Assembly (NCBI GenBank): GCA_033980235.1
Contig: CM067070.1
Coordinates: 4,386,978-4,450,977, forward strand
Length of the DNA stretch: 64,000 nucleotides
Direction: 5' to 3'
Source of the DNA: Diadema setosum
Lineage: Eukaryota; Echinodermata; Echinoidea; Diadematoida; Diadematidae
Shown: positions 1,041 through 29,860 of the stretch, piece after piece
How positions within the stretch are numbered: the stretch's first letter is position 1
How the letters are laid out: every line of letters begins with the position of its first letter
Notes under the pieces: generated by a model
What the model was told of the DNA's origin: nothing
The model's database searches: none
Seen by the model: only the letters and a program-made list of their open reading frames with translations
Translations under genes and position numbers: made by a program

Positions 1041-1057
1041 GATGACTGCCAACTTTT

Positions 1058-1385: not shown

Positions 1386-1445
1386 ACTGGGAGCTACTTA
1401 GAGGGGCAACCTCCATAGGTGCACACACTCAATAGTATACCTATA
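1386..1445. other. Short spacer between retrotransposon and foldback fragment
   Basis: AT-rich sequence with no feature I can support; it separates the presumed LTR from the first core fragment of the foldback family. Confidence 0.4.
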
Positions 1446-2095: not shown

Positions 2096-2109
2096 CCCCA
2101 ACAAAAAAG

Positions 2110-5100
2110 ACCTGTGGTACTCCCTGTGGTACTTGTCGGTACCACAAAATGTACCACACAATTGTAATGTTACCACAGGAACTGTGTGGTACTGTACCAC
2201 AGGCTTGTAGGGTACTCCCTGTAGTACTTGTCAGTACCACACAATGTACCACATGAATAAATGTTACCACTGTGTGGTACTGTTTTACAGGCTCATGTGG
2301 TACTCCCTGTAGTACTGGCTGGTACCACACAATGTACCACACAAATATTAACACAGGAACTGTGTGGTACTGTGTGACAGGCTCGTGTGGTACTCTGGGA
2401 TGTACCACAGGGCAGTACCACAGGACATTACCACAGGAAAGTACCACAGGACAGTACCACTAGACAGTATACACACAAATTGTCCTGTGGCATTTTGGGA
2501 CGTATAACACACGACAGTACCACAGGACAGTACTGCATGAATTGTCCTGTGGTATTTTGGGACGTAACATAGGAGAGTACAACAGGAAAGTACCACAGGA
2601 TAGTACCACAGGACAGTACCACACGACTTGTTCTGTGGTATTTTACGGCGAACCACAGGACAGTACCACAGGAATTGTCCTGTGGTATTTTGGGACATAC
2701 CACAGGACAGTACCACATTACAGTACCACAGGATAGTACCACACGACAGTACCTCAGGACTTGTCCTGTGGTATTTTGGGACGTACCACAGGACAGTACC
2801 ACAGGGCTGTACCACAGGACAGTACCACGGAGCAGTACCACAGGACAGTACCACAGGAAAGTACCACAGGACATACCACACGACTTGTCCTGTGGTATTT
2901 TGGGACGTACCACAGGACAGTACAACAGGGCAGTACCACAGGAAAGTACCACTGGATAGTACCACAGGACAGTACCAAACGACTTGTCCTGTGGTATTTT
3001 GGGACGTACCACAGGGCAGTACATCAGGACAGTACCACAGGATAGAACCACAGGACAGTACCACACGACTTGTCCTGTGGTATTTTGGGACATACCACAG
3101 GACAGTACCACAGGAATTGTCCTGTGGTATTTTGGGACGTACCACAGGACAGTACCACAGGGCAGAACCAAAGGACAGTACCACAGGATAGTACCACACG
3201 ACAGTACCACACGACTTGTCCTGTGGTATTTTGGGACGTACCACAGGACAGTACCACAGGAAAGTAGCACAGGATAGTACCACAGGACAGTACCACATGA
3301 CTTGTCCTGTGGTATTTTGGGACGTACAACAGGATAGTACCACAGGATACTACCACAGGACAGTACTTCACGACTTGTCCTGTGGTACTTTGGGACGTAC
3401 CACAGGACAGTACAACAGGGCAGTACCACAGGACAGTACCACAGGAAAGCACCACTGGATAGTACCAAAGGACGGTACCAAACGACTTGTCCTGTGGTAT
3501 TTTGGGACGTACCACAGGACAGTACCACAGGAATTGTCCTGTGGTATTTTGGGACGTACCACAGGACAGTACCACAGGGCAGTGCCACAGGACAGTCCCA
3601 CAGGACAGTACCACAGGAATTGTCCTGTGGTATTTTGGGACGTACCACAGGACAGTACCACAGGACAGTACCACAGGTTAGTACCACAGGACATACCACA
3701 CGACTTGTCCTGTGGTATTTTGGGACATACCACAGGACAGTACCACAGGAATTGTCCTGTGGTATTTTGGGACGTACAACAGGACAGTACCACAGGATAT
3801 TACCACAGGACAGTACTTCACAACTTGTCCTGTGGTACTTTGGGACGTACCACAGGACAGTACAACAGGGCAGTACCACAGGACAGTACCACAGGAAAGT
3901 ACCAGTGGATAGTACCACAGGACAGTACCAAACGACTTGTCCTGTGGTATTTTGGGACGTACCACAGGGCAGTACATCAGGACAGTACCACAGGATAGAA
4001 CCACAGGACAGTACCACACGACTTGTCCTGTGGTATTTTGGGACATACCACAGGACAGTACCACAGGAATTGTCCTGTGGTATTTTGGGACGTACCACAG
4101 GACAGTACCACAGGGCAGAACCAAAGGACAGTACCACAGGATAGTACCACACGACAGTACCACACGACTTGTCCTGTGGTATTTTGGGACGTACCACAGT
4201 ACAGTACCACAGGAAAGTAGCACAGGATAGTACCACAGGACAGTACCACATGACTTGTCCTGTGGTATTTTGGGACATACCACAGGAATTGTCCTGTGGT
4301 ATTTTGGGACGTACCACAGGAATTTAGCACAGGGCAGTGTCCACAGGACAGTACCACAGAATAGTACCACAGGAAAGTACCGCACGACTTTTCCTGTGGT
4401 ATTTTGGGACGTACAACAGGACAGTACCACAGGATACTACCACAGGACAGTACTTCACGACTTGTCCTGTGGTACTTTGGGACGTACCACAGGACAGTAC
4501 AACAGGGCAGTACCACAGGACAGTACCACAGGAAAGTACCACTGGATAGTACCAAAGGACGGTACCAAACGACTTGTCCTGTGGTATTTTGGGACGTACC
4601 ACAGGACAGTACCACAGGAATTGCCCTGTGGTATTTTGGGACGTACCACAGGACAGTACCACAGGGCAGAACCACAGGACAGTACCACAGGATAGTACCA
4701 CTGGACAGTACCACACGACTTGTCCTGTGGTACTTTGGGACGTACCACAGGACAGTACCACAGGAAAGTAGCACAGGATAGTACCACGAGACAGTACCAC
4801 ATGACTTGTCCTGTGGTATTTTGGGACGTACCACAGGACAGTACCACAGGAATTGTCCTGTGGTATTTTGGGACGTACCACAGGACAGTACCACAGGGCA
4901 GTGCCACAGGACAGTACCACAGGACAGTACCGCACGACTTTTCCTGTGGTATTTTGGGACGTACTACAGGACAGTACCACAGGAAAGTACCACAGGATAG
5001 TACCACAGGACAGTACCACATGACTTGTCCTGTAGTATTTTGGGACATACCACAGGACAGTACCACAGGAATTGTCCTGTGGTATTTTGGGACGTACCAC

Positions 5101-5160
5101 AGGACAGTACCACAGGACAGTACCACACGAATTGTCCTGTGGAATTTTTGGACGACCACA
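2110..5160. repeat. Long 13-bp array with hairpin units (copy A)
   Basis: Tandem CAGTACCACAGGA words interrupted at regular intervals by an inverted pair, TCCTGTGGTA and TACCACAGGA, around the spacer TTTTGGGACG. Each such unit can fold into a 10-bp hairpin, and several dozen are present. A distinct outer section near 2110-2400 (CTCCCTGTAGTACTTGTC and related words) is shared with the right ends of copies C and F. Because 13 is not a multiple of three and stop codons are scarce in the word, frames of hundreds of codons stay open on both strands. Their peptides repeat every 13 residues and are not genes. Confidence 0.93.
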
Positions 5161-5164
5161 GGAC

Positions 5165-6130
5165 AGTACGACAGGAATTCCTGTGGTAATTTTCAATGTA
5201 TACCACAGGAGAGTACCACAGGAACTGTCCAAATCCCACAGGAAAATCATAATGTGGTGCTATTCCACACAGAAGTACCACACAGCAAATTGAATGCGTA
5301 AGTACCACAGAAAAATGCTACAGGATATTCTTTTTTTCTTAACATTTTATACCAGAGGACTATCACATCAGGAGAATATCAAACAGCTGTACCAGACAGG
5401 AGTACCACACGGGAAAATTGTAAAGCAGAATCTACTGAAATTTATTATAGAAATACAAACAGAAAATCACATAATAATATTCCTCAATTAATTGATAGAT
5501 GAGTTATGCTGTCAAATACAGCAATTGATTTGCCATTACTTATCCTGTCCTATGCTCCTACAGTATTACCTATTTAGTGAAAGTGCTGATGTAAAGCATG
5601 AGAAATTTCATAAGGACTTCTGTGGTACTCCTGTGGTACTTCTGTGGTACTCCTGTGGTACAAATTTTTACATAGCTCATGAATATTCATAAAAAGCACT
5701 CTAGATTTTAGAAAATACATATATGACTTAAAAAGTCAAAGTATTAATGATGGGACTTACTTTGAACTTTATGAAAGATTGTCTAATTATGTTATGTTAT
5801 TCCCAATATCATAGATATTGTTATGAAAGTGTAATTTCATATTTTGATAATAAATTATAATCGAGTTAGTTACCAATGCTTAATGCTTTACGGATAGACG
5901 GCCATATATATATGTACTAATACAGTCGATGGCTACCTAGGAATAGACTATGACTATAAAGATCTATTATAGAACTAGATTGGCACTTGGCCATTAGACT
6001 CTCGTTTGAGGTTATATGTTAGTAGTAGGACATGCTATTAAATAGGGTCATGTTTGTCCTGAAATCCATCACTCACCTATCAGGAATATTCCTTGATATG
6101 TGACTAAAATTCTCCCAGATTTTTTTTTTC
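5165..6130 (-). other. Unique core of foldback copy A (T and M halves, inverted)
   Basis: The only non-repetitive part of the element, about 1 kb. It matches 1446-2095 (T) and 7020-7260, 20590-20920 and 23340-23650 (M). It is AT-rich with no open frame of useful length. The M half carries the stretch that reads CTATCCGTAAAGCATTAAGG on the minus strand. Confidence 0.75.
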
Positions 6131-6495
6131 GATCTATCCTGTGTGGTACTCTCCTGTGGTACCATGGAAATGTTGTGTGTTACTGCCCTGTGGCAATGCT
6201 GTGTGGTAATGATCCGCCTGTGGTACTGTCCCAGAATACCACAGGACAGTTCCTGTGGTACTGTTCTGTGGTACTACTAGTCCTGTGGTACTGCCCTGTG
6301 GTACGTCCCAAAATACCACAGGATTTCATGTGGTACTGCCCTGTGGTACGTCCCAAAATACCACAGGAATTCCTGTGGTACTGTCCTGTGGTACTGTCCT
6401 GTGGTACTTTCCTGTGGTACTGTCCTGTGGTACTGCACTGTGGTACCGTCCTGTGGTAATTACCACAGGAGTACCACAGGACTTTTTCGTAAGGG

Positions 6496-6555
6496 TAATG
6501 TGGTACGTCCCAAAATACCACAGGGCAAGTCGTGTGGTACTGTCCTGTGGTACTA
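6496..6555 (+). repeat. Continuation of copy E after the insertion of copy A
   Basis: TAATGTGGTACGTCCC and following words continue the T-to-array junction broken at 2095. This stretch ends in ...GGTACTA, where the outer terminus of copy D begins. Confidence 0.65.
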
Positions 6556-7666
6556 CCCTTACGAAAAAGTCCTGTGGTACTCCTGTGGTAATTACCACAG
6601 GACGGTACCACAGGACAGTACCACAGGACAGTACCACAGGAAAGTACCACAAGACAACACCACAGGAATTATCCTGTGGTATTTTGGGACATACCACAGG
6701 ACAGTACCACAGGAATTCCTGTGGTATTTTGGGACGTACCACAGGGCAGTACCACAGGAAAGTACCACAGGACCGGTACCACAGAACAGTACCACAGGAC
6801 AGTACCACAGGAATTCCTGTGGTATTTTGGGACGTACCACAGGGCAGTACCACAGGATTTGTTCCACAGAACAGTAACACAGGAACTGTCCTGTGGTATT
6901 TTGGGACAGTACCACAGGACAGTACCACAGGTCGATCATTACCACACAGCATTACCACAGGGCAGTACCACACAGCATTTCCATGGTACCACAAGAGATA
7001 CCACACAGGATAGATCGAAAAAAACAAATCTGGGAGAATTTTGGCCACATATCAATGAATATTTCTGATAGGTGAGTGATGGATTTCAGGACAAACATGG
7101 CCCTACTTAATAACCTGTCCTACTCCTAACATATAACCTCAAACAAGAGTCTAATGGCCAAGTGCCCATCTAGTCCTATAATAGATCTATATAGTCATTC
7201 TCTATTCCTAGGTAGCCATCGACCGTATCCGTACATATATATATGGCCGTCTATCCGTAAACCTGGTATCTCACTGAGCGGCGAACGTTTGCGAACGTAG
7301 CGAATTTGAGATTCGCCAACTTTTCTGACGAATGTTTGCGAAAAATCAAAGTTCGCTTCTGCCATTAGCGACAGTTAGTGACTTTTAGCTATGTTTAGCG
7401 ACAATTAGCAACACTTTAGCGAATGTTTGCGAAAGTGTTTGCGAACACAGGTGGCGACTATTAGCGAATGTTTGCAAATGTTAGCGACAATTTTGCAAAT
7501 GTTAGCGACAATTTTGCAAATATTAGCAACTGTTTGCAAATCATTTGCGACAATTTTGCGAATGTTCTTGGACCTAGAAAAGTACCAGGCGATTGTGTAT
7601 AGTAAGACCCATAAAACGACATAAAACCTTCCACTGAATTCAGATCTCTTGTGACAACCGTTCAAG

Positions 7667-8272
7667 ATGGATTTCCAGGATATGGAAATAAATTTCTGCC
7701 AAGAAGAGGCTCAAGGTGTTGCTATCCTTAAAGAGCTGCTTTGTCAGGCTGCTGCTACAGCTATTCTCTCTAAAAAAGAAAGAGTGAAAATGTTCACTCT
7801 TGAAGAAGTGAATAACAGAAAAGAGTGAGTTTCAAGTGAAATTAGAGTGATTTTGGAGTGAAAATGTTCATTTTCCCCCATTTTTGAGTGACCTCAGGGA
7901 TCACTCCAAGATTTTCGAGTGATCCCTGAGGTCACTCCAAAATGAGTGAAAATAGATATTTTCACTCAAAATTCACTCCAATTTCACTCAAAACTCACTC
8001 TTTTCTTTAATTCACTCCTTCAAGAGTGAACATTTTCACTCTTTCTTTTTAGAGAGTTGTGCAGCATAAGAGAAATAAAATAAAGAAATACAAGAAAGGA
8101 AGAAGAAAAGAAAGAGATTCAGAGAGTGCTTGTTGCAGAGGACAGACTTTAGTCAATATGAAAAGCTTTTGAACCAATTACAATCATGATGGAGATGTCA
8201 AGAGCTTCAAGAACTTTCTTAGAGAGGAACCTTGTCTGTTTCAGAACCTTTTATATAGGAACCATGTGGTTA
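7667..8272 (+). pseudogene. Remnant of PIF/Harbinger transposase N-terminus
   Basis: An ATG at 7667 (CAAGATGG context) opens a frame starting MDFQDMEINFCQEEAQG. It is interrupted at 7766 by a small inverted-repeat element and can be followed again from 8057. In two frames, with a shift in a purine-rich stretch and another near 8190, the second part reads KKKRKRFRECLLQRTDFSQY, then EKLLNQLQ, then SFKNFLREEPCLFQNLL. The spacing of a basic stretch, QYE-LL-L and SFKNFLR matches the start of Harbinger transposases. The catalytic DDE region is missing; the sequence passes directly to the 3' inverted terminus. The remnant cannot give a functional protein. Family call is by motif memory, with no search. 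Confidence 0.6.
7766..8056. mobile_element. MITE with CTCTCTAAAAA termini and AGTGA words
   Basis: Nearly the whole 291 bp is an inverted repeat. Its ends are CTCTCTAAAAA(A)GAAAGAG, followed by TGAAAATGTTCACTC. Inside are many AGTGA/TCACT words and the palindromic pair GATCACTCC and GAGTGATCC. Removing it rejoins the surrounding frame as GCT ATT GTG CAG if two T residues are the target duplication. It is the third level of nesting here (MITE in Harbinger in foldback). Confidence 0.78.
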
Positions 8273-8673
8273 TTTGTTCGCTAGCAGTGGCGAATAATAC
8301 AAAAACGTTAGCGACACCGTATTACGACCGTTTGCGAATTTTTACGAGTGTTTTGCGAATGTTTGCGAATGTTTGCAACTGTTAGCGAAAATACAAATTC
8401 GCAAAGGTTCGCAAAGAAATTTTTGAACATGTTCAAAATTTCTTTGCGGCAAGAAAAACTGTTTCAGACAATTAAAACCGTTTGCGAACTTTCTTGCGAA
8501 TGTTAACGAACCTTTTGCAACCGTTTACGAACCCTGGCCAATTCCCAAATTCGCTACGTTCGCAAACGTTCGCCGCTCAGTAAGATACCCCCTTAAAGCA
8601 TTAAGGCATGGTTACTAACTCGATTATACTTTATCATCAAGATGTGAAATTACACTTTCATAACAATATCTAT

Positions 8674-9180
8674 TATTATTATTATTATTATTATTAATGG
8701 TATCTTTATTCAACAAATCATTGATCGCAGCCTGAGGCTGAACTACAAATGATTTTACAAAAGTGAGAATATACATACACAGTATTACATAAATATACAA
8801 ATGTAAAATTACAAAATCAAAATGACACGCAGGCTCACAAAAAACTAGAACAATTCGAAAAAGAAAGAAACTCTCAGACACTGCATAGGCCTACACAAGA
8901 AATAATGAAAATTTGAATTGACATGGATCATTGACTCTAAAGTTTCCAAGATAATCACTGCCAATCAGTACATGAATATTCATTAAATTCCATAAAATTA
9001 CATTATACCTTAAACCATTTCCGGGTATGAGAAAAAAAAAGAACAAAATTATCACATTTTTCACTTTATGTTTGACCTTTAACCGTGATATTTCCAAAAC
9101 AATTTCTGCCCACCAATACATACATATTCAATTAATTCCATGAAAGTTCCTTGAACCATTTCCCAAATATATAAATTTCT
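8674..9180 (-). mobile_element. LINE 3' end with (TAT)n tail
   Basis: On the minus strand this ends in CAATGATTTGTTGAATAAAG, then ATACCATTAATAATAAT and further ATA units, a microsatellite tail as in many LINEs. Near-identical copies lie at 20921-21492 and 28640-29590. It joins core half M at the same base as in copy B, so the two junctions are copies of one event. Beyond about 9180 the match to the other copies is lost. No coding sequence is preserved. Confidence 0.68.
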
Positions 9181-10260: not shown

Positions 10261-10740
10261 TAGCGATGGCATCAGGACATACAATAATAAACAAAATTAT
10301 TTTCACTTGGCGTTTGCCCTTTGACCTCAACCCCCCCCCCCCCCGGAAAAAAAAAAAAAATTAAGTAATACGAATACACACTAAGTTTCAAAATATGCCC
10401 TCCAGCATTGCACAAGCATGGGAAAAACAAAGAAGAAGAAATGTACATTTGGCCTTCATCTTTAACCCTAAAATTTCAAATATATATAACATAACATAAA
10501 CATAAATATTCATTAAGTTACATGAATGTACATTGTACCTTAAACCATTTCCGGGCATGAGAGAAAAAAAAATTATAACATTTTCACTTTATGTTTGTCC
10601 TTTAAAACTGATATTTTCAAAACAATTTTGCCCATCAATACATACATATTCACTTATTTCAATGAAAATTCCTTGCACCATTTCCCAGATATATGAAAAA
10701 AATATATATATACTTGACGTTTAACCGTTGACCTTTGACT
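10261..10740 (-). repeat. Inner segment of the same LINE-associated repeat family
   Basis: Shares long stretches with 21400-21480 and 29360-29590: TTTTCACTTGGCGTTTG, a poly-C run, GGAAAAAAAA, then AAGTAATAC and CCTCCAGCATTGCACAAGC. It continues with the CATTTCCGGGCATGAG section seen in the other copies. The word order differs from the copy at 8674, so this family contains internal duplications. Confidence 0.6.
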
Positions 10741-11031: not shown

Positions 11032-11229
11032 ATTTGTGTGGCGCTCCGTCGGAATGAGTCAAAAGTCGCAAAAAATGAAATCGTAGTTATGCCTATAAGT
11101 GAATTCTACAGACTCTAAGCTTTACACTGATATGTAATACAACTCATTTCGACATCCCTATAGATCATAAAAACGAATATTAACCACGTTTGTTATGTCA
11201 GTTGGTTTTCTAAATAACGGAGAAAATCG

Positions 11230-11565
11230 CTCTCAAAGTTCAGGCTATGTTCATGCTCACAACCTGTTTCTTTCACGGGACGAAACAATACAACTGTCCT
11301 GCTTAGCGACGGTGTTTACGCTCCATCGCACGCACTACCGTATAAGGCGATAGCTTGGGTATGTAAGATAATCAACCAATCGCAGGACAGGTCTATCATT
11401 AACGATTCTGACCAATACGGCAGCCCGAATGTAAACTTCGGCGCGTTTGTGTCCGTGCCGCTGCCGCCGCATGAATGAGTCGGTACGCGTTGTGTGTCGG
11501 CTGCGTTGTGGTTTGCCGCAAGTTTTTAACTCACAAACAATAGGAACAGTAGAAAGAAAAGAAGG
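11230..11565. promoter_or_regulatory. CpG-rich patch inside the 5.47-kb element
   Basis: GC and CpG content rise clearly above the AT-rich surroundings (for example GGCGCGTTTGTGTCCGTGCC and GCTGCCGCCGC). It lies immediately upstream of the short ORF at 11572. Promoter activity is only an inference from base composition and position. Confidence 0.3.
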
Positions 11566-11862
11566 CACGCAATGCGTCTTACGAGAAGCGTCTTTTTAAT
11601 AGCGAGTGCGTTGATCGCTTCCATTCTCCTCCCATGTTGTTGTCAATGGAAACTAAAGAGGATGCGTTTAGCAAGTACCAATACCTAAATAAAACCTGAG
11701 AACCTATTGTAGGCGGGCACGCAATGCGTCTTACGAGAAGCGTCTTTTAGCGAGGGCGTTCATCGCTCCCAGTCTCCTATGTTGTTGTCAATGGAAACTA
11801 AAGAGGATGCGTTTAGCAAGTACCAATACCTATTAAATAGAACCTGAGAACCTAATCTAGGC
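11566..11862 (+). repeat. Direct duplication, offset 152 bp
   Basis: Two tandem copies (about 11566-11717 and 11718-11862) starting GCACGCAATGCGTCTTACG and both ending near AACCTGAGAACCTA. The second copy has small deletions. Confidence 0.85.
11572..11688 (+). CDS. Possible 38-codon ORF with signal-peptide-like sequence
   Basis: ATG at 11572, TAA at 11686-11688. The peptide starts MRLTRSVFLIASALIASILL: a basic start, a hydrophobic stretch of about 15 residues, then PCCCQ, which looks like a secretory signal with a cleavage region. The short remainder is basic (WKLKRMRL). It follows a CpG-rich patch and sits in the first unit of a direct duplication; in the second unit the same frame stops after eight codons. 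It could be a short secreted peptide, a first exon (a weak GTACCA donor lies near its end) or chance. I do not recognise it. Confidence 0.22.
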   Translation: MRLTRSVFLIASALIASILLPCCCQWKLKRMRLASTNT

Positions 11863-12630
11863 GGGGGTTCAAAAGACAGCATCGGTAGAAAAAGTCAATG
11901 AAGTTGATTAACGATAGTCGTCTTTTGAGATCGTGTTCTTTGCGTGTACTTAAAACCCTCAAATTACGCACATGGTCGTAATGTTGCAGAGCATCAAAAA
12001 CTGCTTTCGCGTCTTTTCTGCTGCAGCTGTATACAGCCGTAACATTATGAATTCCCGCCATATTAAAGGCACATTTCCTTTATAGGCGTTGCGTGCACAG
12101 TAATTATCGCTTATCACGCTTGCCAATGCTGCACACATTGTACGTACCAGAAGCAAAGGTTGATGTAGGCTTGACAGCTTCACGTTGGGTTTACAATGAT
12201 TCTCAGTCATTTTTCTAATAGCATAGCATATAAAAAACAATTAATTTGTAGCTTAAGCGGAATTATTTTTTTTTTACATCACATGTGCAGTTACAATCTT
12301 TCTGCGTTTGAGAAGTGGATCATAAATAATAATACTGAAAAATATTCGGAATTAATACTTAGGCCTTCTTCATTTCGTTTTGTATTCACAAACCTTATCA
12401 GAAAAAAAAAAATGATTGCTTGATTACTTTCGGGTAAAGGAACTACCGGAAAGGAACCGCATTTACTTTTCTTGTTAACGAACCTAAGCTAATAGCAAAC
12501 CATATTTCATTGTGTGATTAACGAACCTTCAGAATAATCAATTGTATTAACCCCCTCTCCCAAGGAAAAAAAAAAAGCATTTCAACGTCATGCGTTGTCA
12601 ATAGCGATAAAAGGCCCGTTTTTATTTCGT
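11863..12630. other. No clear gene; one 69-codon minus-strand frame
   Basis: The minus strand holds a frame from 12061 to 11852 with mixed, protein-like composition (including DAKAVFDALQHYDHVRNLRV), but no family I recognise and no visible splice structure. It may be a transposase exon remnant of the surrounding element. Otherwise AT-rich. Confidence 0.25.
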
Positions 12631-12632
12631 AG

Positions 12633-12874
12633 TGTGTCTCAGTACTCCTGTGCTTATTTCTAAGGATGTGCCTCTCTTAATGATTGCGATTGATGTTCAA
12701 CTATTTCTTTCACGCGAGCTTGAACAGGAAGAAGCTAAAATTCAGGCAAGGAGACGAGTTTTCTTCCATGAGATGCAATCATTAAGACACATCTATTCAC
12801 GAAAGTTGTGTGATTGCTTATGTGCTAAAGAATTGTGTCCATTACATGAATCAGGCACTATACAAAACGGTTGA
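12633..12874 (+). CDS. Possible terminal exon of unknown protein
   Basis: A pyrimidine-rich stretch with TTTATTTCGTAG ends at 12632, a plausible acceptor. The frame then runs to a TGA at 12872-12874, with an internal ATG at 12680. The peptide contains RELEQEEAKIQARRRVFFHE and two cysteine clusters (CDCLCAKELC), so it has normal protein composition. It lies within the 5.47-kb element and may be part of that element's own gene. No family recognised; no upstream exon identified. Confidence 0.22.
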
Positions 12875-15800
12875 AATCTACTGAAAGTCGAACTTCGTTT
12901 TGTTTTTTGTTTTTTGTTCGATTTCATTTCAATTTTAAGCGGGGATAGACTAGAAATTAGTTTGTCTATACTGGCAGGAGACATTACAGTTTTCCAGTAC
13001 ATGCTCCGCATTTAAACAGTCGCCATATTTTCGTGGTCAGAATCAGATAATGGACACGTGATATATTATAAAAATGAAAATAGAAAACAAGGAACACGCC
13101 ATATGTACAAACATTATGAACTTCAATGAATTAAACTTACCTGTGATATTCTGCATAAAAAACAAGCACCCGATTAAATGATAATTAATAGAGCACACAG
13201 CGATATCATGCATGGCAGATCAAATCAAGTTCAACTGGTGAGAAAGCTAAATGAAGTTAAAAAGTTGACTTTTCGTTTCTCTTTCAATTCATGAAAACAG
13301 AATTACATTGTATATCTATTGAAGAGGATTGTCTCTGTTGCTAACGATCGCCATATATAGCACTGTTAGTCTCCTGCGCAAATCCGAATCCCTAAATACT
13401 TTAATTTTTGCTTGATAATGTAATAACCCTGCTTATAATTTCATAAAGGACTCGCAAATTCAAAGTTTCAAACCGTATACTGAAACATTATATTGTATAC
13501 GGTGTATTTCAAAAAAAACATTTTGAATGCGTTGCGTGTTAGCATGTTAATAGCACAAATCTGCCTTTTATTTTCCGTACGTAAAGCGCACAGAAACGTA
13601 ACCAAATGTTACAAAATACAGTGAAATGCATTGTACGGCGTGGTACTATCATTAGAAGTATATCCAATTCCTTTTTACTTTTATTTGCTTGAACCAAACC
13701 ATGTGTCATTTTCGTAGCAACATCACTAGAAATTAGAATGTATGAAGATAATCGTTACTCATTTTTTTTTTTTTTGCGCTACTATTATAGCATTTACATT
13801 TTCCAACTTTTATTGACATGCAGTACTATGTTACTGTATTGTTACGATTACGAATGTTGGTTATGAATTCAAAAGACTGGTTTATTAATCGAACTACAAA
13901 GGTAATAGCTGTTTTGAAAGTAGTTCGATACAAGTTCAAAACGCGATCGAAGTCATTGCCATAGGGGGAACTGATAGCTCTAGAAAACTTGTTTAGGCTA
14001 GTAAAGATTGCCGTATAGGCAATCTTTGTAGAAAGTTTTGACTTAAGCCGTCTTTTGAGTATTTTGAGAAATTTAATAAAGAATTATTTGTTTTGATTAT
14101 ATCAAGAATTAGTTTGAACTATGAGAATAAAAAGGCGCGGTTACCCAAACAATGTCGTAGTTCGATTAGACAGTCATGATGGGTAAAGTGAATTCATGAC
14201 TTGACTAATCCTTACTGAATTGATGATCACTTCTGTAAACCATCAGTTATGTCTTGTAATCGTAGTCAAAATTCTTTTGAGCGATGAGACGAAAACCAAC
14301 AAACAAAATGCCGTGTATCATCGCTCGAGATTCCAACATTTGGCGTCACCCGACCAACAATAAGTGACAAATCAAATGGAATATTATGTTGTGTAATAGC
14401 AGACTGTGTTACGATTTTTAAATGTTTCGAGCAATTGTTTAAAAAAGAGAGAGAAAATGAGGCAAAGTTCAAGAAATTAGAAAAAAGCACGTAAATGCCG
14501 GCGATCATGTTTGATAAAGTAAGAGATTACAATCGGCCGTGCGGATGTATATGATTGCCTTATTTACATGTCTGATTTCTGTAAACTATGTGATATTTAA
14601 ATTTAAGTTCCCTTCCCTCCTTGATAGAAGTTTTGTTGGGTTTTCGCTATAGGCATTTATTAGGAAACGCTGTAAAAACGACAACAAATGCCTACTATAC
14701 ATCAAGAGATGACCTATAGATACATGAAACACAAAAAATCTCTACGTTCTGATATAAATCAACTGCTTGTTTGTTTGTTTGTTTGTTTGTTTTGAACTAC
14801 CATGGTCTTTGTCGGGGGAAAGATGAACAAAAGTAGTAGAGTGTATCACTCTCAAATCCGGATGATTGCGATAAGTGTGTATCCCCGCCCTTTCTATACA
14901 GGTAAACGATTTAAGCTTGGTATGCTATTATAAAAGCCTGCATGTGTCACGCGGAAGAACTGATTCCGTGATCACTTTTAGCCTTTCATAAAATTCACGT
15001 TTTAAGATGGTAACGATAGTTTGTAGGAGATAGAGTAAGTTAGCGTCACTGAATGTGGTTCTGAACACAAAAGGAGACTGAAAAATGCCTTTACAAATTA
15101 GCAGACATAATGCCGATCCTCCAACACTGTTGCTCCATTCCGTCACTGATTCTGCTATCAATGGCGAAGAAAGAATACTGGTTGCGTGATTATCCACCCC
15201 TTGATAGCAGGAAGTTTACCTTTCATTGTTTAAGGCTTCGTTGATGCGGAGTTTACTCGGATACAAGGCGTGAACATTGCCGTCCGAGTTCTTTCATTCG
15301 AAATTCCTCAGAATACGCAATTCAATGGGCAATTAGCGCTGCTACTTGGCAAGGCTGTTAGCCAACCCAATTCTTTGCAGACTTGACCTCTCACTTGATT
15401 GTCAGCTACACGCAATACACGACAAACAGCTATCATTACAAACATTCTGATTAAAAAACAAAACAAAATGAAGAAGCACACTTTTGAGTAGCGACGCAGC
15501 TTTCTGTCCCTTTCTCAAATAGGTCTTACTTCTAAAAAATACACAGATGACTAGAGTCAGAATATCCTCCAAAGGGAACACGAGCTATCTGGACATTAAT
15601 AATGTTTGTCTTCCGATTTCTCTCCATGCCGTCACGGCCCAAACCATCATAAGAAATAAGGCAATAAGTTTCATTCACCAGGGAAATAATAGTACGCATT
15701 ACATACATTTGGCGAATTATCACACAAATTGTCGACTTTATAAAAACGAGAATAATTGACAACTTAGGCCCTACTATATCTCCAGAGATGAACTTTAAAC

Positions 15801-16059
15801 AGCAAGTCACATACCAGGGAACGAAAGTTATGATTATTTGAACAAATTCATTAATGAGGCCAATTAATAACCGTTGTAAAAGTACACACACGCATAAAAA
15901 GGTTTAGAGTTCGATATGTGATCATTGTATTAGTTCATAGATAAAGTATCATAAATTTTGCGTGATCGTTCGTTGGAATTATTTTTTTTTTCAGTGCGAT
16001 TTGTGCGTCATGTCAATCACCACTCGTTGAAATGGAGTGCATGTATCAAACGAAACTCG
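12875..16059. other. AT-rich interior of the 5.47-kb element, no gene seen
   Basis: Only short frames without recognisable motifs. Simple repeats include (GTTT)n near 14767-14792. A local hairpin is formed by AAAGATTGCC and GGCAATCTTT around 14003-14030. Confidence 0.45.
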
Positions 16060-16290
16060 CTGGTCATGCAATCAATAGCCTTGGTCAGCTCACTATTATT
16101 GCGTAATTCTATAGCCCTCGCCGCTTGGCCGCCGACGCCGCCGCGCGCACCATGCTTTGTTTTGTCTTCAACCTGGGGTCAAGAGCAATGCCTCATTAGC
16201 ATACACCCTAGCAACGGAGGCGGAGTCTCGATCTGGCAAGAACAATAGGTGCGAAACGCAACGCAAAGGCGAGCGTTCGAAAAAAATGTA
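16060..16290. promoter_or_regulatory. Second CpG-rich patch inside the 5.47-kb element
   Basis: GCCGCTTGGCCGCCGACG and CCGCGCGCACC stand out from the AT-rich background. The patch lies about 210 bp inside the right terminus, as 11230-11565 lies just inside the left one. A paired promoter function is an inference. Confidence 0.28.
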
Positions 16291-16504
16291 ACCGAAAAAA
16301 ATTGTCTCAGAAAAACGGTGATTTGGGACACTTGTACTCATTTTCACACGCTGAAATTTTCTGTACAAACAGATAAAACGTCAAGGAATCAAAATCCGTC
16401 ATAAAAAAAAATTCGACCCGAGTAGTGCTTCCCCTTCATTTTCGGCTCATTACGGGAAAACTCCCCGTGCGACTTATGACTCATTTTGTCGGAGCGCCAC
16501 ACAT

Positions 16505-17830
16505 TTATTGTGAAGTATTCAATAATCCAATAAGATATGGAATTGGGCTTCTCCTGTACCTTTCTGTTCTACACCTCATAGTGGGATATTGTGTTGACCT
16601 TCTTAAAGATGAAGAGTACCTGGTCTGTCGAGGTGCTGGTAACCAGTGCCTGAATTGTTGTGACTTAAGCAGTGACTTGGCAAATTTGCAGCATACATCA
16701 TGCCTGCGAGCCTCACGAGACTGAAGTTGTGTTATTTCGAGAGCATTGAGATAAGTGCCATAGGATTCGCCTAAGATCATTCGTAGGGCTCGTTTTTGCA
16801 CCCTTTCAATTTGGAGTGACAGCTGTTGTGTAAGACCCGGATGCCACACCGGGACAGCGTATTCAACCAGGGGTCTGATGTAACCTGTGTACACTTTTAA
16901 CAAATCTTTCATTGGAAGTTTAAAAGATTTCAATGATCTTAACATGAACAATCTCTTACTAACCTTTGACAGCATGGCACTCACGTAGCTGTCCCACTTG
17001 AGGTTAGACTGCACAAGTACACCTAGGATTTTTACCACATCCACTTCAGCCAAAGTCTGGCCATTTAGACTACATTGTGTAGAAGGCAACTGGGTTTTAC
17101 CAAAATCAACCCTCATTACATGACATTTAGAAGCATTCAGTTGCTTGTTATTTGTAGTGCACCATCTGTCTAATTTCTGAAGGGTACCTTGCATTTCACC
17201 AACCAATCCTCGTTGTGTTGCTTACGCTATCGTCATGTCGTCTACATATTTCCAATGTTCAATACTGGATGGCATCAAGGCGTCGTTAATGAAAATCAGG
17301 AATAACACTGGGCCCAAACGTGTTCCTTGTGGTATTCCCGCATAGAGAGATCTACTTGAGGACAGACAACCACGGTAGCGAACACGCTGGGATTGGTCAG
17401 TGAAGAAGTTGTCAATCCAAGATATGAGAGAAGGATGGACTTGCAATTCAACCAACTTTGACATGATTATTGAGTGGTCTACTCTATCAAAAGCTTTGGA
17501 GAAATCTGTTGTAACTACCACGGACCTAGTACCTAGCTTGTCGGCGTTTTTGGATAAAAAGTTGACAATATCCACTAAGCAGTGCGTACATGACATACCA
17601 GCTCTACTACCAAATTGTTTACTGTCAAGGGAGGGATCAATGGCAGACACCAACCACTTAGTGATAAACAACTCAGCAAGTTTTGCAAAATGATCTGTAA
17701 GTGCTATTGGTCTAAGCTTATCGATTCTGGCTGGTTTCTCTTTCGGGACAGGAACTACTTTTGCTTGCTTCCACTAATGTGGCACAACACGTTCGGTATA
17801 GGAACTGTTCAGAATGTGACATAACGGGGA
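16505..17830 (-). pseudogene. Non-LTR retrotransposon reverse transcriptase (Jockey/CR1-like), 3' part
   Basis: Minus-strand reverse transcriptase from fingers to the ORF end. Motifs in order: VVPVPKEKPARIDKLRPIAL near 17790-17730, FGSRAGMSCTHCLVDIVN, TTDFSKAFDRVDHSI (catalytic Asp), LYAGIPQGTRLGPVLFLIF, the catalytic box YVDDMTIA, then the thumb and C-terminal part (NASKCHVMRV, LGVLVQSNLKWDSYV, IRPLVEYAVPVWHP, VQKRALRMILG) ending RYRRSPIPYLIGLLNTSQ. A TAA codon at 17224-17222 follows the YVDD box in the same frame, so the copy is dead. The 5' part (endonuclease, ORF1) is lost where the foldback sequence starts near 17833. The 3' tail continues at 11031, beyond the inserted 5.47-kb element. 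Confidence 0.9.
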
Positions 17831-17832
17831 GC

Positions 17833-20151
17833 TTCATCAGCACTTTCACTAAATAGGTAATACTGTAGGAGTAGGCCTATAGGACAGGATAAGTAATGGC
17901 AAATAATTTGCTGTAATTCACAGCAAACCTCATCTATCAATTAATTGAGGAATATTAATATGTGTTTTTTTGTTTATATTTTTGTTATAAATTTCAGTCC
18001 TGCCTGTCCTGTGGTACGCCCCAAAATACCACAGGACAATTCCTGTGGTACTGTCCTGCGGTATTTCCCAAAATACCACAGGACAAGTCGTGTGGTACTG
18101 TCCTATGGTACAATCCTATGGTACTGTCCTGTCGTACGGCCCTGTGGTACGTCCCAAAACACCACAGAACAAGTCGTGTGGTACTGTCCTGTGGTACTAT
18201 CCTGTGGTACTTTCCTGTTGTACTGTCCTGTGGTACTGCCCTGTGGTATTGTCCTGTGGTACTGCCCTGTGGTACTGTCCTGTGGTACGTCCCAAAATAC
18301 CACAGGACAATTCCTGTGGTACTTTCCTGTGGTATGTCCCAAAATACCACAGGACAAGTTGTGTGGTACTGTCCTGTGGTACTTTCCTGTGGTTCTGCCC
18401 TGTGGCATTGTCCTGTGGTACGTCCCAAAATACCACAGGACAAGTAGTGTGGTACTGTCCTGTGATATTATCCTCTGGTACTTTCCTGTGGTACTGCCCT
18501 GTGGTACTGTCTTTTGGTACGTCCCAAAATACCGCAGGACAAGTCGTGTGGTACTGTCCTGTGGTACTATCCTGTGGTACTTTCCTGTGGTACTTTCCTG
18601 TGGTACTGCTCTGTGGTACTGTCCTGTGGTACTGCCCTGTGGTACTGTCCTGTGGTACGTCCCAAAATACCAGAGGACAAGTCGTGAGGTACTGTCCTGT
18701 GGTACTATCCTGTGGTACTGTCCTGTGGCACGTCCCAAAATACCACAGGACAATTCCCCTGGTACTTTCCTGTGGTATGTCCCAAAATACCACAGGACAA
18801 GTTGTGTGGTACTGTCCTGTGGTACTTTCCTGTGGTACTGCCCTGTGGCACTGTCCTGTGGTACGTCCCAAAATACCACAGGACAAGTCGTGTGGTACTA
18901 TCCTGTGATACTATCCTGTGGTACTTTCCTGTGGTACTGCCCTGTGGCACTGTCCTGTGGTACATCCCAAAATACCACAGGACAAGTCGTGTGGTACTAT
19001 CCTGTGATACTATCCTGTTGTACTTTCCTGTGGTACTGCCCTGTGGTACTGTCCTTTGGTACGTCCCAAAATACCGCAGGACAAGTCGTGTGGTACTGTC
19101 CTGTGGTACTATCCTGTGGTACTTTCCTGTGGTACTGCTCTGTGGTACTGTCCTGTGGTACTGCCCTGTGGTACTGTCCTGTGGCACGTCCCAAAATACC
19201 ACAGGACAAGTCGTGAGGTACTGTCCTGTGGTACTATCCTGCAGTACTGTCCTGTGGTACTGTCCTGTGGTACGTCCCAAAATACCACAGGACAATTCCT
19301 GTGGTACTGTCCTGTGGTACTATCCTGTGGTACTTTCCTGTGGTACTGTCCTGTGGAACTGCCCTATGGTACTGTCCTGTGGTACGTCCTAAAATACCAC
19401 AGAACAAGTCGTGTGGTACTGTCCTGTGGTACTATTCTGTGGTACTTTCATGTACTCTCCTCTGTTATGTCCCAAAATACCACAGGACAATTCATGTGGT
19501 ACTGTCCTTTGGTACTGACGTCGTGTGGTATACGTCCCAAAATACCACAGGACAATATATATTTTGTGTTCATACTGTATTGTGGTTCTGTCCTGTGGTA
19601 CTGCCCTGTGGTACATCCCAGAGTACCACACGAGCCTGTGACACAGTACCACACAGTTCCTGTGGTAACATTTATTTATGTGGTACATTGTGTGGTACTG
19701 ACAAGTACTACAGGAAGTACCCTACAAGCCTGTGGCACAGTACCTCGCAGTCGTACCACACGACTGTCCTGTGGTATGTCCCAAAATACCACAGGACAGT
19801 ACCACAAGACAGTACGACAGGAATTGCCCTTTGTTATTTTGGGACGTACCACAGGACAGTACCACAAGATATAGGTATTACATGTACAGGTACTATCCTG
19901 TGGTACTTTCCTGTGGTACTACCCTGTGGTATGTCCCAAAATACCGCAGGACAAGTTGTGTGGTACTCTCCTATGGTACTTTCCTGTGGTACTGCCCTGT
20001 GGTATGTCAAAAAATACCACACAAGTCGTGTGGTACTGTCCTTTGGTACTCTCCTGTGGTACTTTCCTGTGGTACTGTCCTGTGGTACTGCCCTGTGGTA
20101 CGTCCCAAAATACCACAGGGCAAGTTGTGTGGTACTGTCCTGTGGTACTAT
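17833..20151 (+). mobile_element. 13-bp foldback family, truncated copy F
   Basis: Starts inside core half T (ATCAGCACTTTCACTAAATAGG), abutting the reverse-transcriptase fragment. From about 18000 it is a long CCTGTGGTAC array with hairpin units. The outer-end section of the family (ACACGAGCCTGTGACACAG, then GTACATTGTGTGGTACTG) is present at 19610-19745 but without the terminal GGACTTTTTT. The array then reverses orientation until copy B begins at 20152. Long open frames here are repeat artefacts. Confidence 0.75.
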
Positions 20152-22840
20152 CCCTTACGAAAAAGTCCTGTGGTACTCCTGTGGTTATTACCACAATACG
20201 GTACCACAGGACAGTACCACAGGACAGTACCACAAGACAGTACCACAGGAATTGTCCTGTGGTATTTTGGGACATACCACAGGACAGTACCACAGGAATT
20301 CCTGTGGTATCTTGGGACGTACCACAGGGCAGTACCACAGGAAAGTACCACAGCACCGGTGCCACAGAACAGTAGCACAGGACAGTACCACAGGAATTCC
20401 TGTGGTATTTTGGGACATACCACAGGGCAGTACCACAGGATTTGTGCCACAGAACAGTACCACAGGAACTGTCCTGTGGTATTTTGGGACAGTACCAAAG
20501 GACAGTACCACAGGTCGATCATTACCACACAGCATTACCACAGGGCAGTACCACACAGCATTTCCATGGTACCACAGGAGAGTACCACACAGGATAGATC
20601 GGAAAAAAAAATCCGGGAGAATTTTGGCCACATATCAATTAATATTCCTTATAGGTTAGTGATGGATTTCAGGACAAACACGGCCCTACTTAATAACCTG
20701 TCCTACTCCTAACATATAACCTCAAACAAGAGTCTAATGGCCAAGTGACCATCTAGTCCTATAATAGATCTATATAGTCATATTCTATTCCTAGGTAGCC
20801 ATCGACCGTATCAGTACATGTATATATGGCCGTCTATCCGTAAAGCATTAAGGCATGGTTACTAACTCGATTATACTTTATTATCAAGATGTGAAATTAC
20901 ACTTTCATAACAATATCTATTATTATTATTATTAATGGTATCTTTATTCAACAAATCATTGATCGCAGTCTGAGGCTGAATTACAAATGATTTTACAAAA
21001 GTGAGAATATACATACACAGTATTACATAAACATACAAATGTAAAATTACAAAATCGAAATGACACGCAGGCTCACACAAAACAAGAACAATTCGCACAA
21101 GAAAGAAACTCTCAGATACTGCATACACAAGAAATAATGAAAATGAATTGACATGGATCATTGACCCTAAAGTTTCCAAGATAATCACTGCCAATCAGTA
21201 CATGAATATTCATTAAATTCCATAAAATTACATTATACATTAAACCATTTCCGGGTATGAGAAAAGAAAAAGAACAAAATTATCACATTTTCACTTTATG
21301 TTTGACCTTTAACCGTAATATTTCCAAAACAATTTCTGCCCACCAATACATACATATTCATTTAATTCCATGAAAGTTCCTTGAACCATTTCCCAAATAT
21401 ATATAAAAAAATTATTTTCACTTGGCGTTTGACCTTTGACTTCAAGCCCCCCCCCCCGGAAAAAAAAAACATTAAGTAATACACTGTAGTAGTACACTTT
21501 CATAACAATATCTATGATATTGGGAATAACATAACACAATTAAACAATCTTTCATAAAGTTCAAAGTAAGTCCAATCATTAATACTTTGACTTTTAAAGT
21601 CATATATGTATTTTCTAAAATCTAGAGTGCTTTTTATGATTATTCATGAGCTATGTAAAAATTTGTACCACAGGAGTACCACAGGAGTACCACAGAAGTC
21701 CTTATGAAATCATTTCTCATGCTTTACATCAGCACTTTCACTCAATAGGTAATACTGTAGGAGTATAGGACAGGATAAGTAATGGCAAATAAATTGCTGT
21801 AATTCACAGCATACCTCTTATATCAATTAATTGAGGAATATGAATAGGTGCTTTTTTGTTTATATTTTTGTTATAGATTTCAGTTGATTCTGCCTTACAA
21901 TTTTCCTGTGTGGTACTCCTGTGTGGTACTGCTGTTTGATATTCTCCTGATGTGATAGTCCTGTGGTATAAAACGTTAAGAAAAAAACTGAATATCCTGT
22001 AGCATTTTTCTGTGGTACTTACGAATTAAATTTGCTGTGTGGTACTTCTGGGTTGAATAGCACCATATTATGATTTTCCTGTGGGATTTTGGACAGTTCC
22101 TGTGGTACTCTCCTGTGGTATACATCGAAAATTACCACAGGAATTCCTGTCGTACTGTAATGTGGTACATCCCAAATTCCACAGGACAATTCGTGTGGCA
22201 CTGTCCTGTGGTACGTAACAAAATGCCACAGGACAAGTCGTGTGGTACTGTCCTGTGGTACGTCCCAAAATACCACAGGACAAATCGTATGGTACTGTCC
22301 TGTAGTACTGCCCTGTGGTACTGTCCTGTGGTACGCCCCAAAATACCATAGGACAATTCCTGTGGTACTGTCCTGTGGTATGTCCCAAAATACCACAGGA
22401 CAAGTCGTGTGGTACTGTCCTGTAGTACTATCCTGTGGTACTGTCCTGTGGTACGGCCCTGTGGTACGTCACAAAACACCACAGGACAAGTCGTTTGGTA
22501 CTGTCCCGTGGTACTATAATGTGGTACTTTCCTGTGGTACTGTCCTGTGGTACTGCCCTGTGGTATTGTCCTGTGGTAGGTCCTACTGCCCTGTGGTACT
22601 GTCCTGTGGTACGTCCCAAAATACCACAAGACAAGTCGTGAGGTACTGTCCTGTGGTACTATCCTGTGGTACTGTCCTGTGGTACGTCCCAAAATACCAC
22701 AGGACAGTTCCTGTGGTACTGTCCTGTGGTATGTCCCAAAATACCACAGGACAAGTTGTGTGGTACTGTCCTGTGGTACTATCCTGTGGTACTTTCCTGT
22801 GGTACTGCCCTGTGGTACTGTCCTGTGGTACGTCCAAAAC
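20152..22840 (+). mobile_element. 13-bp foldback family, copy B, 3' truncated
   Basis: Outer terminus CCCTTACGAAAAAGTCC at 20152, short array to about 20590, core half M to 20920, a LINE insertion, core half T from 21516 to about 22160, then a CCTGTGGTAC array to about 22840. It ends abruptly in G-rich satellite sequence, so the right terminus is missing. Confidence 0.8.
20898..21515 (-). mobile_element. 5'-truncated LINE insertion with a 23-bp target duplication
   Basis: TACACTTTCATAACAATATC plus TAT is repeated exactly at 20898-20920 and 21493-21515. The inserted 572 bp (20921-21492) begin with a TAT/AAT tail and end near GTAATACACTGTAGTAG. On the minus strand this is a truncated LINE 3' end with its microsatellite tail at the target, as target-primed reverse transcription produces. 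The empty site is present intact at 23630-23660. Confidence 0.92.
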
Positions 22841-22930
22841 GGGGGGTGGGAGGGAGAGGGGGAGGGGGTAAGGGGGCAATTGGGGGCGACTGTCTGGGGC
22901 CCCGTGCAGGATAAAATAACTGGCGTTGGT
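22841..22930 (+). repeat. Satellite unit fragment left of copy C
   Basis: A G-rich start, then CTGTCTGGGGCCCCGTGCAG, then GATAAAATAACTGGCGTTGG. It matches the end of the satellite unit at 26400-26640. The unit is broken by copy C and resumes at 26086. Confidence 0.75.
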
Positions 22931-25900
22931 CCCTTACGAAAAAGTCCTGTGGTACTCCTGTGGTAATTACCATAGGACGGTACCACACGACAGTACCACA
23001 GAACAGTACCACAGGAAAGTACCACAGGACAGTACCACAGGAATTGTCATGTGGTATTTTGGGATGTACCACAGGGCAGTACCACAGGAAAGTACCACAG
23101 GACCGGTACCACAGAGCAGTACCACAGGACAGTACCACAGGAATTCCTGTGGTATTTTAGGACGTTCCACAGGGCAGTACCACAGGACTAGTACCACAGA
23201 ACAGTACCACAGGAACTGTCCTGTGGTATTTTGGGACAGTAACATAAGGACAGTACCACAGGTCAATCATTTTCCACACAGCATTACCACAGGGCAGTAC
23301 CACACAGCATTTCCATGGTACCACAGGAGAGTACCGCACAGGATAGACCGAAAAAAAAATCTGGGAGAATTTTAGCCACATATCAAGGAATATTCCTGAT
23401 AGGTGAATGATGGATTTTAGGACAAACATTGCCGTACTTAATAACCTGTCCTACTCCTAACATAACCTCAAACGAGAGTCTAATGGCCAAGTGCCATTCT
23501 AGTCCTATAATAGATCTATATAGTCATATTCTATTCCTAGGTAGCCATCGACCGTATCAGTACATATATATATGGCCGTCTATCCGTAAAGCATTAAGGC
23601 ATGGTTACTAACTCGATTATGCTTTATTATCAAGATATGAAATTACACTTTCATAACAATATCTATGATATTGGGAATAACATAACATAATTAGACAGTC
23701 TTTCATGAAGTTCAAAGTAAGTCCCATCATTAATACTTTGACTTTTTAAGTCATATATGTATTTTCTAAAATCTAGAGTGCCTTTTATGAATATTCATGA
23801 GCTATGTAAAAATTGTACCACAGGAGCACCACAGGAGTACCACAGGAGTACCACAGATGTCCTTCTGAAATTTCTCATGCTTTACATCAGCACTTTCACT
23901 AAATAGGTAATGCTGTAGGAGTATAGGACAGGATAAGTAATGGCAAATCAATTGCTATAATTCACAGCATAACTCATCTATCAATTAATTGAGGAATATT
24001 AATATGTGCTTTTTTGTTTATATTTTTGTTATAAATTTCAGTTGATTCTGCTTTACAATGTACTCCTGTGTGGTACTGCTGTTTGATATTCTCCTGATGT
24101 GATAGTCCTCTGGTATAAAATGTTAAAAGAAAAAAAAATATCCTCTAGCACTTTTCTGTGGTATTTACGCATTTAATTTGCTGTGTGGTACTTCTGTGTG
24201 GAATAGCACCATATTATGATCTTCCTGTGGGATTTTGGACAGTTCCTGTGGTACTCTCCTGTGGTATACATCGAAAATTACCATAGGAATTCCTGTCGTA
24301 CTGTCCTGTGGTGCGTCTCAAAATTCCACAGGACAATTCGTGTGGTACTGTCCTGTGGTACGTCCCAAAATACCACAGGACAAGTCGTGTGGTACTGTCC
24401 TGTGGTACTATCCTGTGGTACTTTCCTGTGGTACTATCCTGTGGTACTGCCCTGTGGTACGTCCCAAAATACCACAGGACAAGTCGTGTGGTACTGTCCT
24501 GTGGTACTATCCTGTGGTACTGTCATGTGGTACTGCCCTATGGTACTGCCCTGTGGTATTGTCCTGTGGTACTGTCCTGTGGTATGTCCCAAAATACCAC
24601 AGGAGAAGTCGTGAGGTACTGTCCTGTGGTACTAACCTGTGGTACTGTCCTGTGGTACTGTCCTGTGGTACCTCCCAAAATACCACAGGACAATTCCTGT
24701 GGTACTGTCCTGTGGGACTGTCCTGTGGTATGTCCCAAAATACCACAGGACAATTCCTGTGGTACTGTCCTTTGGTACTGTCCTGTGGTATGTCCCAAAA
24801 TACCACAGGACAAGTCGTGTGGTACTGTCCTGTGGTACTGTCCTGTGTTATGTCCCAAAATACCACATTATAAGTCGTGTGGTACTGTGCTGTGGTACTG
24901 TCCTGTGGTATGTCCCAAAATACCACAGGACAAGTCGTGTGGTACTGTCCTGTGGTACTATCCTGTTGTACTGTAATGTGCATGGTACTGCCCTGTGGTA
25001 CTGTCCTGTGGTACGTCCCAAAATACCACAGGACAAGTCGTGTGGTACTGTCCTGTGGTACTTTCCTGTGGTACTGTCCTGTGGTACTGCCCTGTGGTAC
25101 TGCCCTGTGGTATTGTCCTGTGGTAATGTCCTGTGGTATGTCCCAAAATACCACAGGAGAAGTCGTGAGGTACTGTCCTGTGGTACTGTCCTGTGGTACT
25201 ATCCTGTGGTACTGTCTTGTGGTACGTCCCAAAATACCACAGGACAATTCCTGTGGTACTGTCCTGTGGTACTGTCCTGTGGTATGTCCCAAAATACCAC
25301 AGAACAATTCCTGTGGTACTGTCCTTTGGTACTGTCCTGTGGTATGTCCCAAAATACCACAGGAGAAGTCGTGTGGTACTGTCCTGTGGTACTGTCCTGT
25401 GGTATGTCCCAAAATACCACAGGACAAGTCGTGTGGTACTGTCCTGTGGTACTATCCTGTTGTACCTTCCTGTGGTACTACCCTGTGGTAAATCCCAAAA
25501 TACCACAGGACAAGTCGTGAGGTACTGTCCTGTGGTACTATCCTGCGGTACTTTCCTGTGGTACTGTCCTGTGGTACTGTCCTGTGGTATTGTCCTGTGG
25601 TACGTCCCAAAATACCACAGGACAGTTCCTGTGGTACTGTCCTGTGGTACTATCCTGTGGTACTTTCCTGTGGTACGTCCCAAAATACCGCAGAACAAGT
25701 CATGTGGTACTGTCCTGTGGTACTATCCTGTGTTACTTTCCTGTTGTACTCTCCTATGGTACGTCCCAAAATACCACAGGACAATTTGTGTGTATACTGT
25801 CTTGTGGTACTGTCCTGTGGTACTTTCCTGTGGTAATGTCCTGTGGTACTGCCCTGTGGTACATCCCAGAGTACCACACGAGCCTGTGACACAGTACCAC

Positions 25901-26085
25901 ACAGTTCCTGTGGTAACATTTATTTATGTGGTACATTGTGTGGTACTGACAAGTACTACAGGGAGTACCCTACAAGCCTGTGGTACAGTACCACACAGTT
26001 CCTGTGGTAACATTACAAGTGTGTGGTACATTGTGTGGTACCGACAAGTACCACAGGGAGTACCACAGGACTTTTTTGTTAGGGG
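22931..26085 (+). mobile_element. 13-bp foldback family, copy C, complete
   Basis: A second complete copy: CCCTTACGAAAAAGTCC at 22931; short array in GTACCACAGG orientation to about 23340; core M (23340-23650); core T (23651-24300); long array in CCTGTGGTAC orientation; the outer-end section near 25855-26070; then GGACTTTTTTGTTAGGGG ending at 26085. It splits a satellite unit: GGCGTTGGT on the left continues as TATTTTGGATTTCTCTG on the right, and intact units read GGTGTTTTGGATATCTCTG. The right arm is much longer than the left, as in copy A. No protein frame in the core. Confidence 0.82.

Positions 26086-29814: not shown

Positions 29815-29860
<46 letters not shown>

What the first reader, a model, noticed from the sequence alone, without database searches (positions are those of the whole stretch)
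2096..26085. Foldback transposon family built from a 13-bp word, at least six copies with three interrupting one another
Two complete copies (2096-6495 and 22931-26085) share outer termini (CCCTTACGAAAAAGTCC), asymmetric inverted arrays of CAGTACCACAGGA and a core of about 1 kb. Empty-site comparison defines the insertion of copy A (TA at both ends). Copies A and D sit in the array or core-array junction of copy E, and B in the array of F, so the family seems to use its own arrays as landing sites. The general foldback organisation is known (FB, TU); this sequence family is not one I can name.
Basis: partly seen in the sequence, partly recalled or inferred. Interest (0 to 1): 0.8.

Follow-up and report, generated by a model that had tools for sequence, protein, structure and literature searches.

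The report
Foldback transposon family, sea urchin
A stretch of probable long-spined sea urchin DNA holds several copies of a protein-less jumping element whose arms repeat a 13-letter word up to about a hundred times, some copies lying inside others; the general design is already known, but this family and its very short target duplication look new.

Summary
The sequence features are real. Two complete copies (A 2096-6495, C 22931-26084) share a left terminus, a core of about 0.9 kb, oppositely oriented word arrays of unequal length and a right end with 88-bp subterminal repeats. Four partial copies (D, E, F, G) also lie in the window. Arrays are a two-unit text: a 13-bp word and a 34-bp unit that is itself an inverted repeat of the word. 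Joined flanks show exactly 2 bp of duplication: TA/TA for A, and GT/GT (or TA with one junction indel) for C. The cores have no stop-free stretch over 66 codons. A gag-type protein beside them is 98% identical to one of Diadema setosum. Best reading: a non-autonomous foldback DNA transposon moved by an unseen transposase, possibly Tc1/mariner. Correction: D and E most likely descend from one insertion later duplicated, so two of three independent insertions lie in own-family arrays; "uses its own arrays as landing sites" is not established. The genome could not be searched.

The parts
2096..6495 (-). Copy A, complete: right end 2096, right arm/array to 5235, core 5236-6128, left arm 6129-6495
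22931..26084 (+). Copy C, complete: left arm 22931-23345, core 23346-24224, right array 24225-about 25870, right end with 88-bp subterminal repeats to 26084
6556..8676 (+). Copy D, left half: left arm 6556-7012, core 7013-7261 and 8591-8676, interrupted by a separate element (about 7262-8590), then broken by a LINE-like insert
20152..22837 (+). Copy E: left arm 20152-20601, core interrupted by a LINE-like insert, array 22085-22837, right end missing
1445..2095 (+). Copy F: partial core and the core-array junction into which A inserted; continues as 60 bp of array at 6496-6555
6496..6555 (+). Remnant of F array between A and D: one 34-bp unit and two words
17835..19751 (+). Copy G: partial core (17835-17998), array and right subterminal repeats, outermost end missing; possibly the right half of D
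19752..20151 (+). Rearranged array of mixed orientation immediately left of E; carries the flank motif shared with D
2094..2095 (.). TA, left copy of the 2-bp target duplication of A (right copy 6496-6497)
   Evidence: uninterrupted homologue in E near 22155
22929..22930 (.). GT, left copy of the 2-bp target duplication of C (right copy 26085-26086); TA is possible if one junction indel is allowed
   Evidence: uninterrupted homologues in the repeats found near 26216, 26403 and 26580

Best explanation
This is a family of non-autonomous foldback DNA transposons. Shown: fixed left termini of 17 bp (left and right ends alike over about 35 bp), a core without a long open frame, arms of opposite orientation made of a 13-bp word and a 34-bp inverted unit, and 2-bp target duplications at the two insertions that could be tested. 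Inferred: a transposase made elsewhere in the genome pairs the termini, binds the array words as extra sites, cuts the element out and pastes it at a short target, TA or nearly so, probably as a Tc1/mariner-type enzyme would. Arrays then grow and shrink by recombination or slippage; A and C have long internal repeats of their own. One block holding an insertion (D/E) was duplicated locally, which makes the nesting look more frequent than it is.
For: Termini and words far above chance. Common order terminus, arm, core, array, subterminal repeats, terminus in both complete copies. Words (up to 1 mismatch) per strand, +/-: A right arm 76/4, A left arm 1/9; C left arm 11/1, C right arm 1/59. Exactly 2 bp excess in the joined flanks of A and of C against uninterrupted homologues. 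No stop-free stretch over 66 codons in core A or C. Two-unit arrays: 311 words and 85 34-bp units in five array stretches. Internal repeats: A-A 95.1% over 514 bp and C-C 94.7% over 570 bp, against a best A-C match of 93.0% over 371 bp. Folded as single-stranded DNA: z -6.60 and -4.21 for the two outer ends of C, -3.25 for a piece of its array, -0.60 for one control stretch.
Against: No transposase or autonomous relative was seen, and the genome could not be searched. The 2-bp duplication rests on two insertions, one of which reads GT rather than TA by the simplest alignment. That the words bind transposase was not tested. Array repeats are not private in every copy: for G the top within-copy match (88.0% over 491 bp) is no better than its match to C (90.2% over 499 bp), and E-E (93.8% over 227 bp) is about equal to A-E (93.2% over 294 bp).
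Confidence: 0.75

Rival explanations
1. The family is moved by a transposase of a superfamily other than Tc1/mariner that also makes 2-bp duplications (for example ISL2EU of the PHIS group, or a CMC-group enzyme, for which 2-4 bp duplications are reported).
For: Copy C reads GT/GT by the simplest alignment and E's left flank ends in TAT, so TA is not strictly required. 2-4 bp for CMC and AT for ISL2EU are stated in PMC4482050 (passages).
Against: ISL2EU's reported target is A|AT|T; A's target is G|TA|A and C's is GT or TA.
Confidence: 0.35
2. The family directs its insertions to its own arrays, for instance because transposase bound to the words captures nearby TA sites.
For: Two of three independent insertions lie in family array DNA or at a core-array junction.
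Against: The third lies in an unrelated repeat; even landing within this window gives two or more of three with probability 0.062, and the window came to attention for its cluster. Neither array insertion used the commonest TA (in GGTA, 337 of 560 TA steps in five array stretches).
Confidence: 0.2
3. The arrays are a satellite DNA that only contains captured pieces of a smaller transposon.
For: Arrays make up most of A and C, and 19752-20151 is rearranged and lacks termini. Tetris shows that foldback arms can seed satellites (PMC4079207, abstract and sections 10 and 16 part 1).
Against: Arrays lie at the same place between core and subterminal repeats in A and C, and word arrays are also present in the left arms of A, C, D and E.
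Confidence: 0.15
4. Assembly artefact of a repetitive region.
For: The region is dense in repeats.
Against: Core pairs differ by about 3-9%, so they are not near-identical duplicates, and D holds an insert that E lacks. A D. setosum assembly from PacBio HiFi reads is in print (PMC11066563, passages), but it was not shown that the window comes from it.
Confidence: 0.05

Closest known systems
TU elements of the sea urchin Strongylocentrotus purpuratus (recalled; in the papers only a citation of a sea urchin foldback was seen, in PMC4079207)
   Same: Sea urchin foldback elements with arms built of short tandem repeats and a variable middle (recalled).
   Different: Recalled: 15-bp repeats and 8-bp target duplications; here a 13-bp word plus a 34-bp inverted unit and 2-bp duplications. 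No sequence comparison was possible.
Tetris foldback of Drosophila virilis (PMC4079207; abstract, section 10 and part 1 of section 16 read)
   Same: Apparently non-autonomous, tandem repeats inside inverted arms, array length variable, rearranged copies and array growth.
   Different: Units of about 220 bp and 8-10 bp duplications; here 13 and 34 bp units and 2-bp duplications.
Galileo, P superfamily (PMC3688188; passages seen)
   Same: Long, internally repetitive inverted ends; binding of the transposase's THAP domain to extra sites in the repeats was shown there.
   Different: Placed in the P superfamily by its transposase; the 8-bp duplication of that superfamily is recalled. Binding to words was not tested here.
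Tc1/mariner-type non-autonomous elements, including the C. elegans palindromic element Tc6 (recalled)
   Same: TA target duplication in copy A; the foldback form exists in this group (recalled).
   Different: Termini CCCTTACG do not match the Tc1 or mariner ends that I recall; no transposase was seen.

Membership tests
Foldback elements (structural class) | Long inverted arms with internal tandem repeats around a middle segment | tested here: met
Foldback elements (structural class) | Fixed termini and target-site duplication | tested here: met
   four left ends identical over 17 bp, 2-bp duplication at the two testable insertions
TU (sea urchin) | 15-bp outer repeats and 8-bp target duplication (recalled) | tested here: not met
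   Word is 13 bp; duplication is 2 bp. TU's definition is from memory
Mutator/P-type foldbacks | 8-10 bp target duplication (Tetris 8-10 bp; P superfamily 8 bp recalled) | tested here: not met
   2 bp for A and C
Tc1/mariner superfamily | TA target duplication | tested here: inconclusive
   A is TA/TA; C is GT/GT, or TA with one junction indel; D's left flank ends in TA, E's in TAT
Tc1/mariner superfamily | Transposase with a DD(E/D) catalytic domain in an autonomous relative | not tested
   The genome search did not complete (12 calls)
ISL2EU (PHIS) | Target A|AT|T with AT duplication (PMC4482050, passages) | tested here: not met
   A's target is G|TA|A; C's is GT or TA

The most novel reading that the evidence does not exclude
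A foldback family whose arm words act both as binding sites and as landing pads: transposase held on an array inserts new copies into older copies' arrays, so the family nests in itself and grows local satellite-like blocks, with a 2-bp target that is unlike the 8-10 bp foldbacks.
Probability: 0.2. Interest if true: 0.55.

Novelty: new member of a known kind. Interest (0 to 1): 0.42.

Why it matters
[quoted passage not shown] a foldback family with 2-bp duplications would be further evidence that the form arose more than once from different transposases. The clean two-unit arrays, whose order differs from copy to copy, would also be a good place to study how transposon arms turn into satellite DNA.

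Tried and rejected
Self-targeting counted as three events: reduced to two after D and E were seen to share a rare flank motif and a LINE junction.

RUNX-type binding sites in the word: the core TGYGGT (consensus recalled) is dense in the three arrays counted (52-58 per kb against 0.9 per kb in a 22-kb control stretch), but the longer form TGYGGTY occurs only 5, 0 and 2 times in them, so the density is probably a by-product of repeating one word.

Preference for a particular TA in the word: neither array insertion used the commonest TA, but two events cannot show a preference.

Searches that led nowhere: the extended left terminus (22 bases) in viral contigs, 0 hits; a double word in prokaryote genome contigs, 0 hits; Rfam at gathering thresholds, 0 matches; tRNAs, 0. 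By their descriptions the two collections are viral and prokaryotic, so these negatives say little about the host. Paper searches listed no paper whose title or abstract start names this family. Some lists were cut (25 of 98 papers shown, 15 of 551, 10 of 13, 15 of 45), and only four papers were opened, in part.

Full report
What is there. The left terminus CCCTTACGAAAAAGTCC is found 5 times with up to 3 mismatches (0.05 expected) and the 13-bp word 274 times with up to 1 mismatch (0.09 expected). Comparing pieces of copy C with the window gives one plan: left arm (0.37-0.46 kb), core (about 0.9 kb), array, right end with 88-bp subterminal repeats. Two copies are complete: A, 2096-6495, in minus orientation, and C, 22931-26084, in plus orientation. 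D, E, F and G are partial. The left ends of A, C, D and E are identical over 17 bp; the right ends of A and C differ from that at 4 and 2 of 17 positions; left and right ends resemble each other over about 35 bp.

Host. A gag-type ORF at 3-1235 (minus strand) matches a Diadema setosum protein at 98% (248 of 252 residues). It belongs to a mobile element, so it points to the genus rather than proving the species. Its Pfam match (gag-type protease) is below the curated cut-off. A chromosome-level D. setosum assembly from PacBio HiFi reads is in print (PMC11066563; passages seen); it reports 25.87% unclassified repeats.

Arrays. An ungapped segmentation into two units covers 92-97% of the arrays of A, C, G and E, 73% of the rearranged stretch 19752-20151 and 76-82% of four left arms, against 6-7% of a control stretch (both strands) and 15% of core C, which holds some word-like pieces. 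The units are the 13-bp word (311 tokens, 90 variants, in the five array stretches) and a 34-bp unit (85 tokens) that is itself an inverted repeat of the word around a spacer. Of 69 uninterrupted intervals between two 34-bp units, 68 hold 1 to 8 words and one holds none. Right after a 34-bp unit the commonest words are TCGTGTGGTACTG (23) and the standard TCCTGTGGTACTG (18); right before one they are the standard word (32) and CCCTGTGGTACTG (14). A and C have long internal repeats more alike than their best match to each other; for G and E this does not hold. Two outer ends and an array piece of C fold as single strands better than their shuffles, one control stretch does not. In A and in C the words of the two arms lie mostly on opposite strands.

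Insertion sites. Joining A's flanks gives exactly 2 bp more than the homologous uninterrupted site in E, which has the TA once: TA is at both ends of A. The homologous junctions of C and of A itself are also 2 bp shorter but read TCC where E reads TAA. Joining C's flanks gives 2 bp more than three of the four neighbouring repeats aligned; the fourth (26722) diverges at this point. The simplest reading for C is GT at both ends; TA is possible if one base was lost at the left junction and the right terminus is CCCC. D's left flank ends in TA and E's in TAT.

How many events. D and E share a 13-base flank motif seen only at 6518 and 20113, where the usual form of it occurs 18 times on each strand. 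They share the left junction of a LINE-like insert, and are 96.6% identical in the left arm, 96.0% in the left core and 97.3% in the first part of the insert. Against this: D is nearly as close to A in the left arm (95.5%; D-C 94.7%, E-C 93.9%), and the far side of the LINE-like insert differs between D and E (below). I still read D and E as one insertion later duplicated. So three independent insertions can be read: A in the core-array junction of F, D/E in an array, C in an unrelated repeat. Family arrays and arms make up 15.2% of the window, so two or more of three in arrays has probability 0.062 under even landing, before allowing for the choice of a clustered window.

Mechanism. Shown: termini, arms, cores without a stop-free stretch over 66 codons, 2-bp duplications at two insertions. 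Inferred: a transposase supplied in trans pairs the ends, with array words as extra binding sites; in Galileo such extra sites were shown to bind the transposase's THAP domain (PMC3688188, passages). The 2-bp duplication separates this family from Tetris (8-10 bp; PMC4079207, section 10) and, from memory, from TU. ISL2EU's A|AT|T target (PMC4482050, passages) is not met. Tc1/mariner is the leading candidate but is not proven.

Unexplained. In E the LINE-like insert is short and flanked by a 22-bp duplication (20898-20919 and 21493-21514; the uninterrupted site is seen in C at 23644-23665). In D the same left junction (8651-8672) leads into a longer insert and no second copy of the 22 bp was found; a reverse-transcriptase domain at 17222-17773 may be its upstream part, and G's core sequence begins at 17835. 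G may therefore be D's right half after a rearrangement.

Limits. The host genome could not be searched, so copy number, an autonomous relative and a general target rule remain open.

Noticed in passing
about 7262-8590: A 1.3-kb element inside copy D with inverted ends of about 45 bp (ends read ACCTGGTATC and AGGGGGTATC), a TAA at both borders that fits a PIF/Harbinger-type TWA target (for the target), and internal arrays of a GCGAA-type word.
   Followed up: partly
about 11036-16504: A 5.5-kb stretch with inverted ends beginning GTGTGGCGCTCCG and a possible 4-bp ATTT duplication, lying between LINE-like pieces; its one listed ORF over 120 aa (15532-15903) has no Pfam match.
   Followed up: partly
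20920-21492: LINE-like insert in copy E with a (TTA)n end and a 22-bp target duplication; related pieces at 8673-9173, 10287-10734 and 28623-29585.
   Followed up: partly
28719-28977: Inside the LINE-like copy at 28623, an insert of about 250 bp bounded by 44-bp inverted repeats (97.7% alike); a related piece lies at 29815-29889.
   Followed up: no
3-1235: Partial gag-type ORF of a retroelement, 98% identical to a Diadema setosum protein and lacking an internal stretch present in it.
   Followed up: partly
45730-46122 and 50891-51292: Two ORFs with immunoglobulin domains, probably exons of host gene(s).
   Followed up: no
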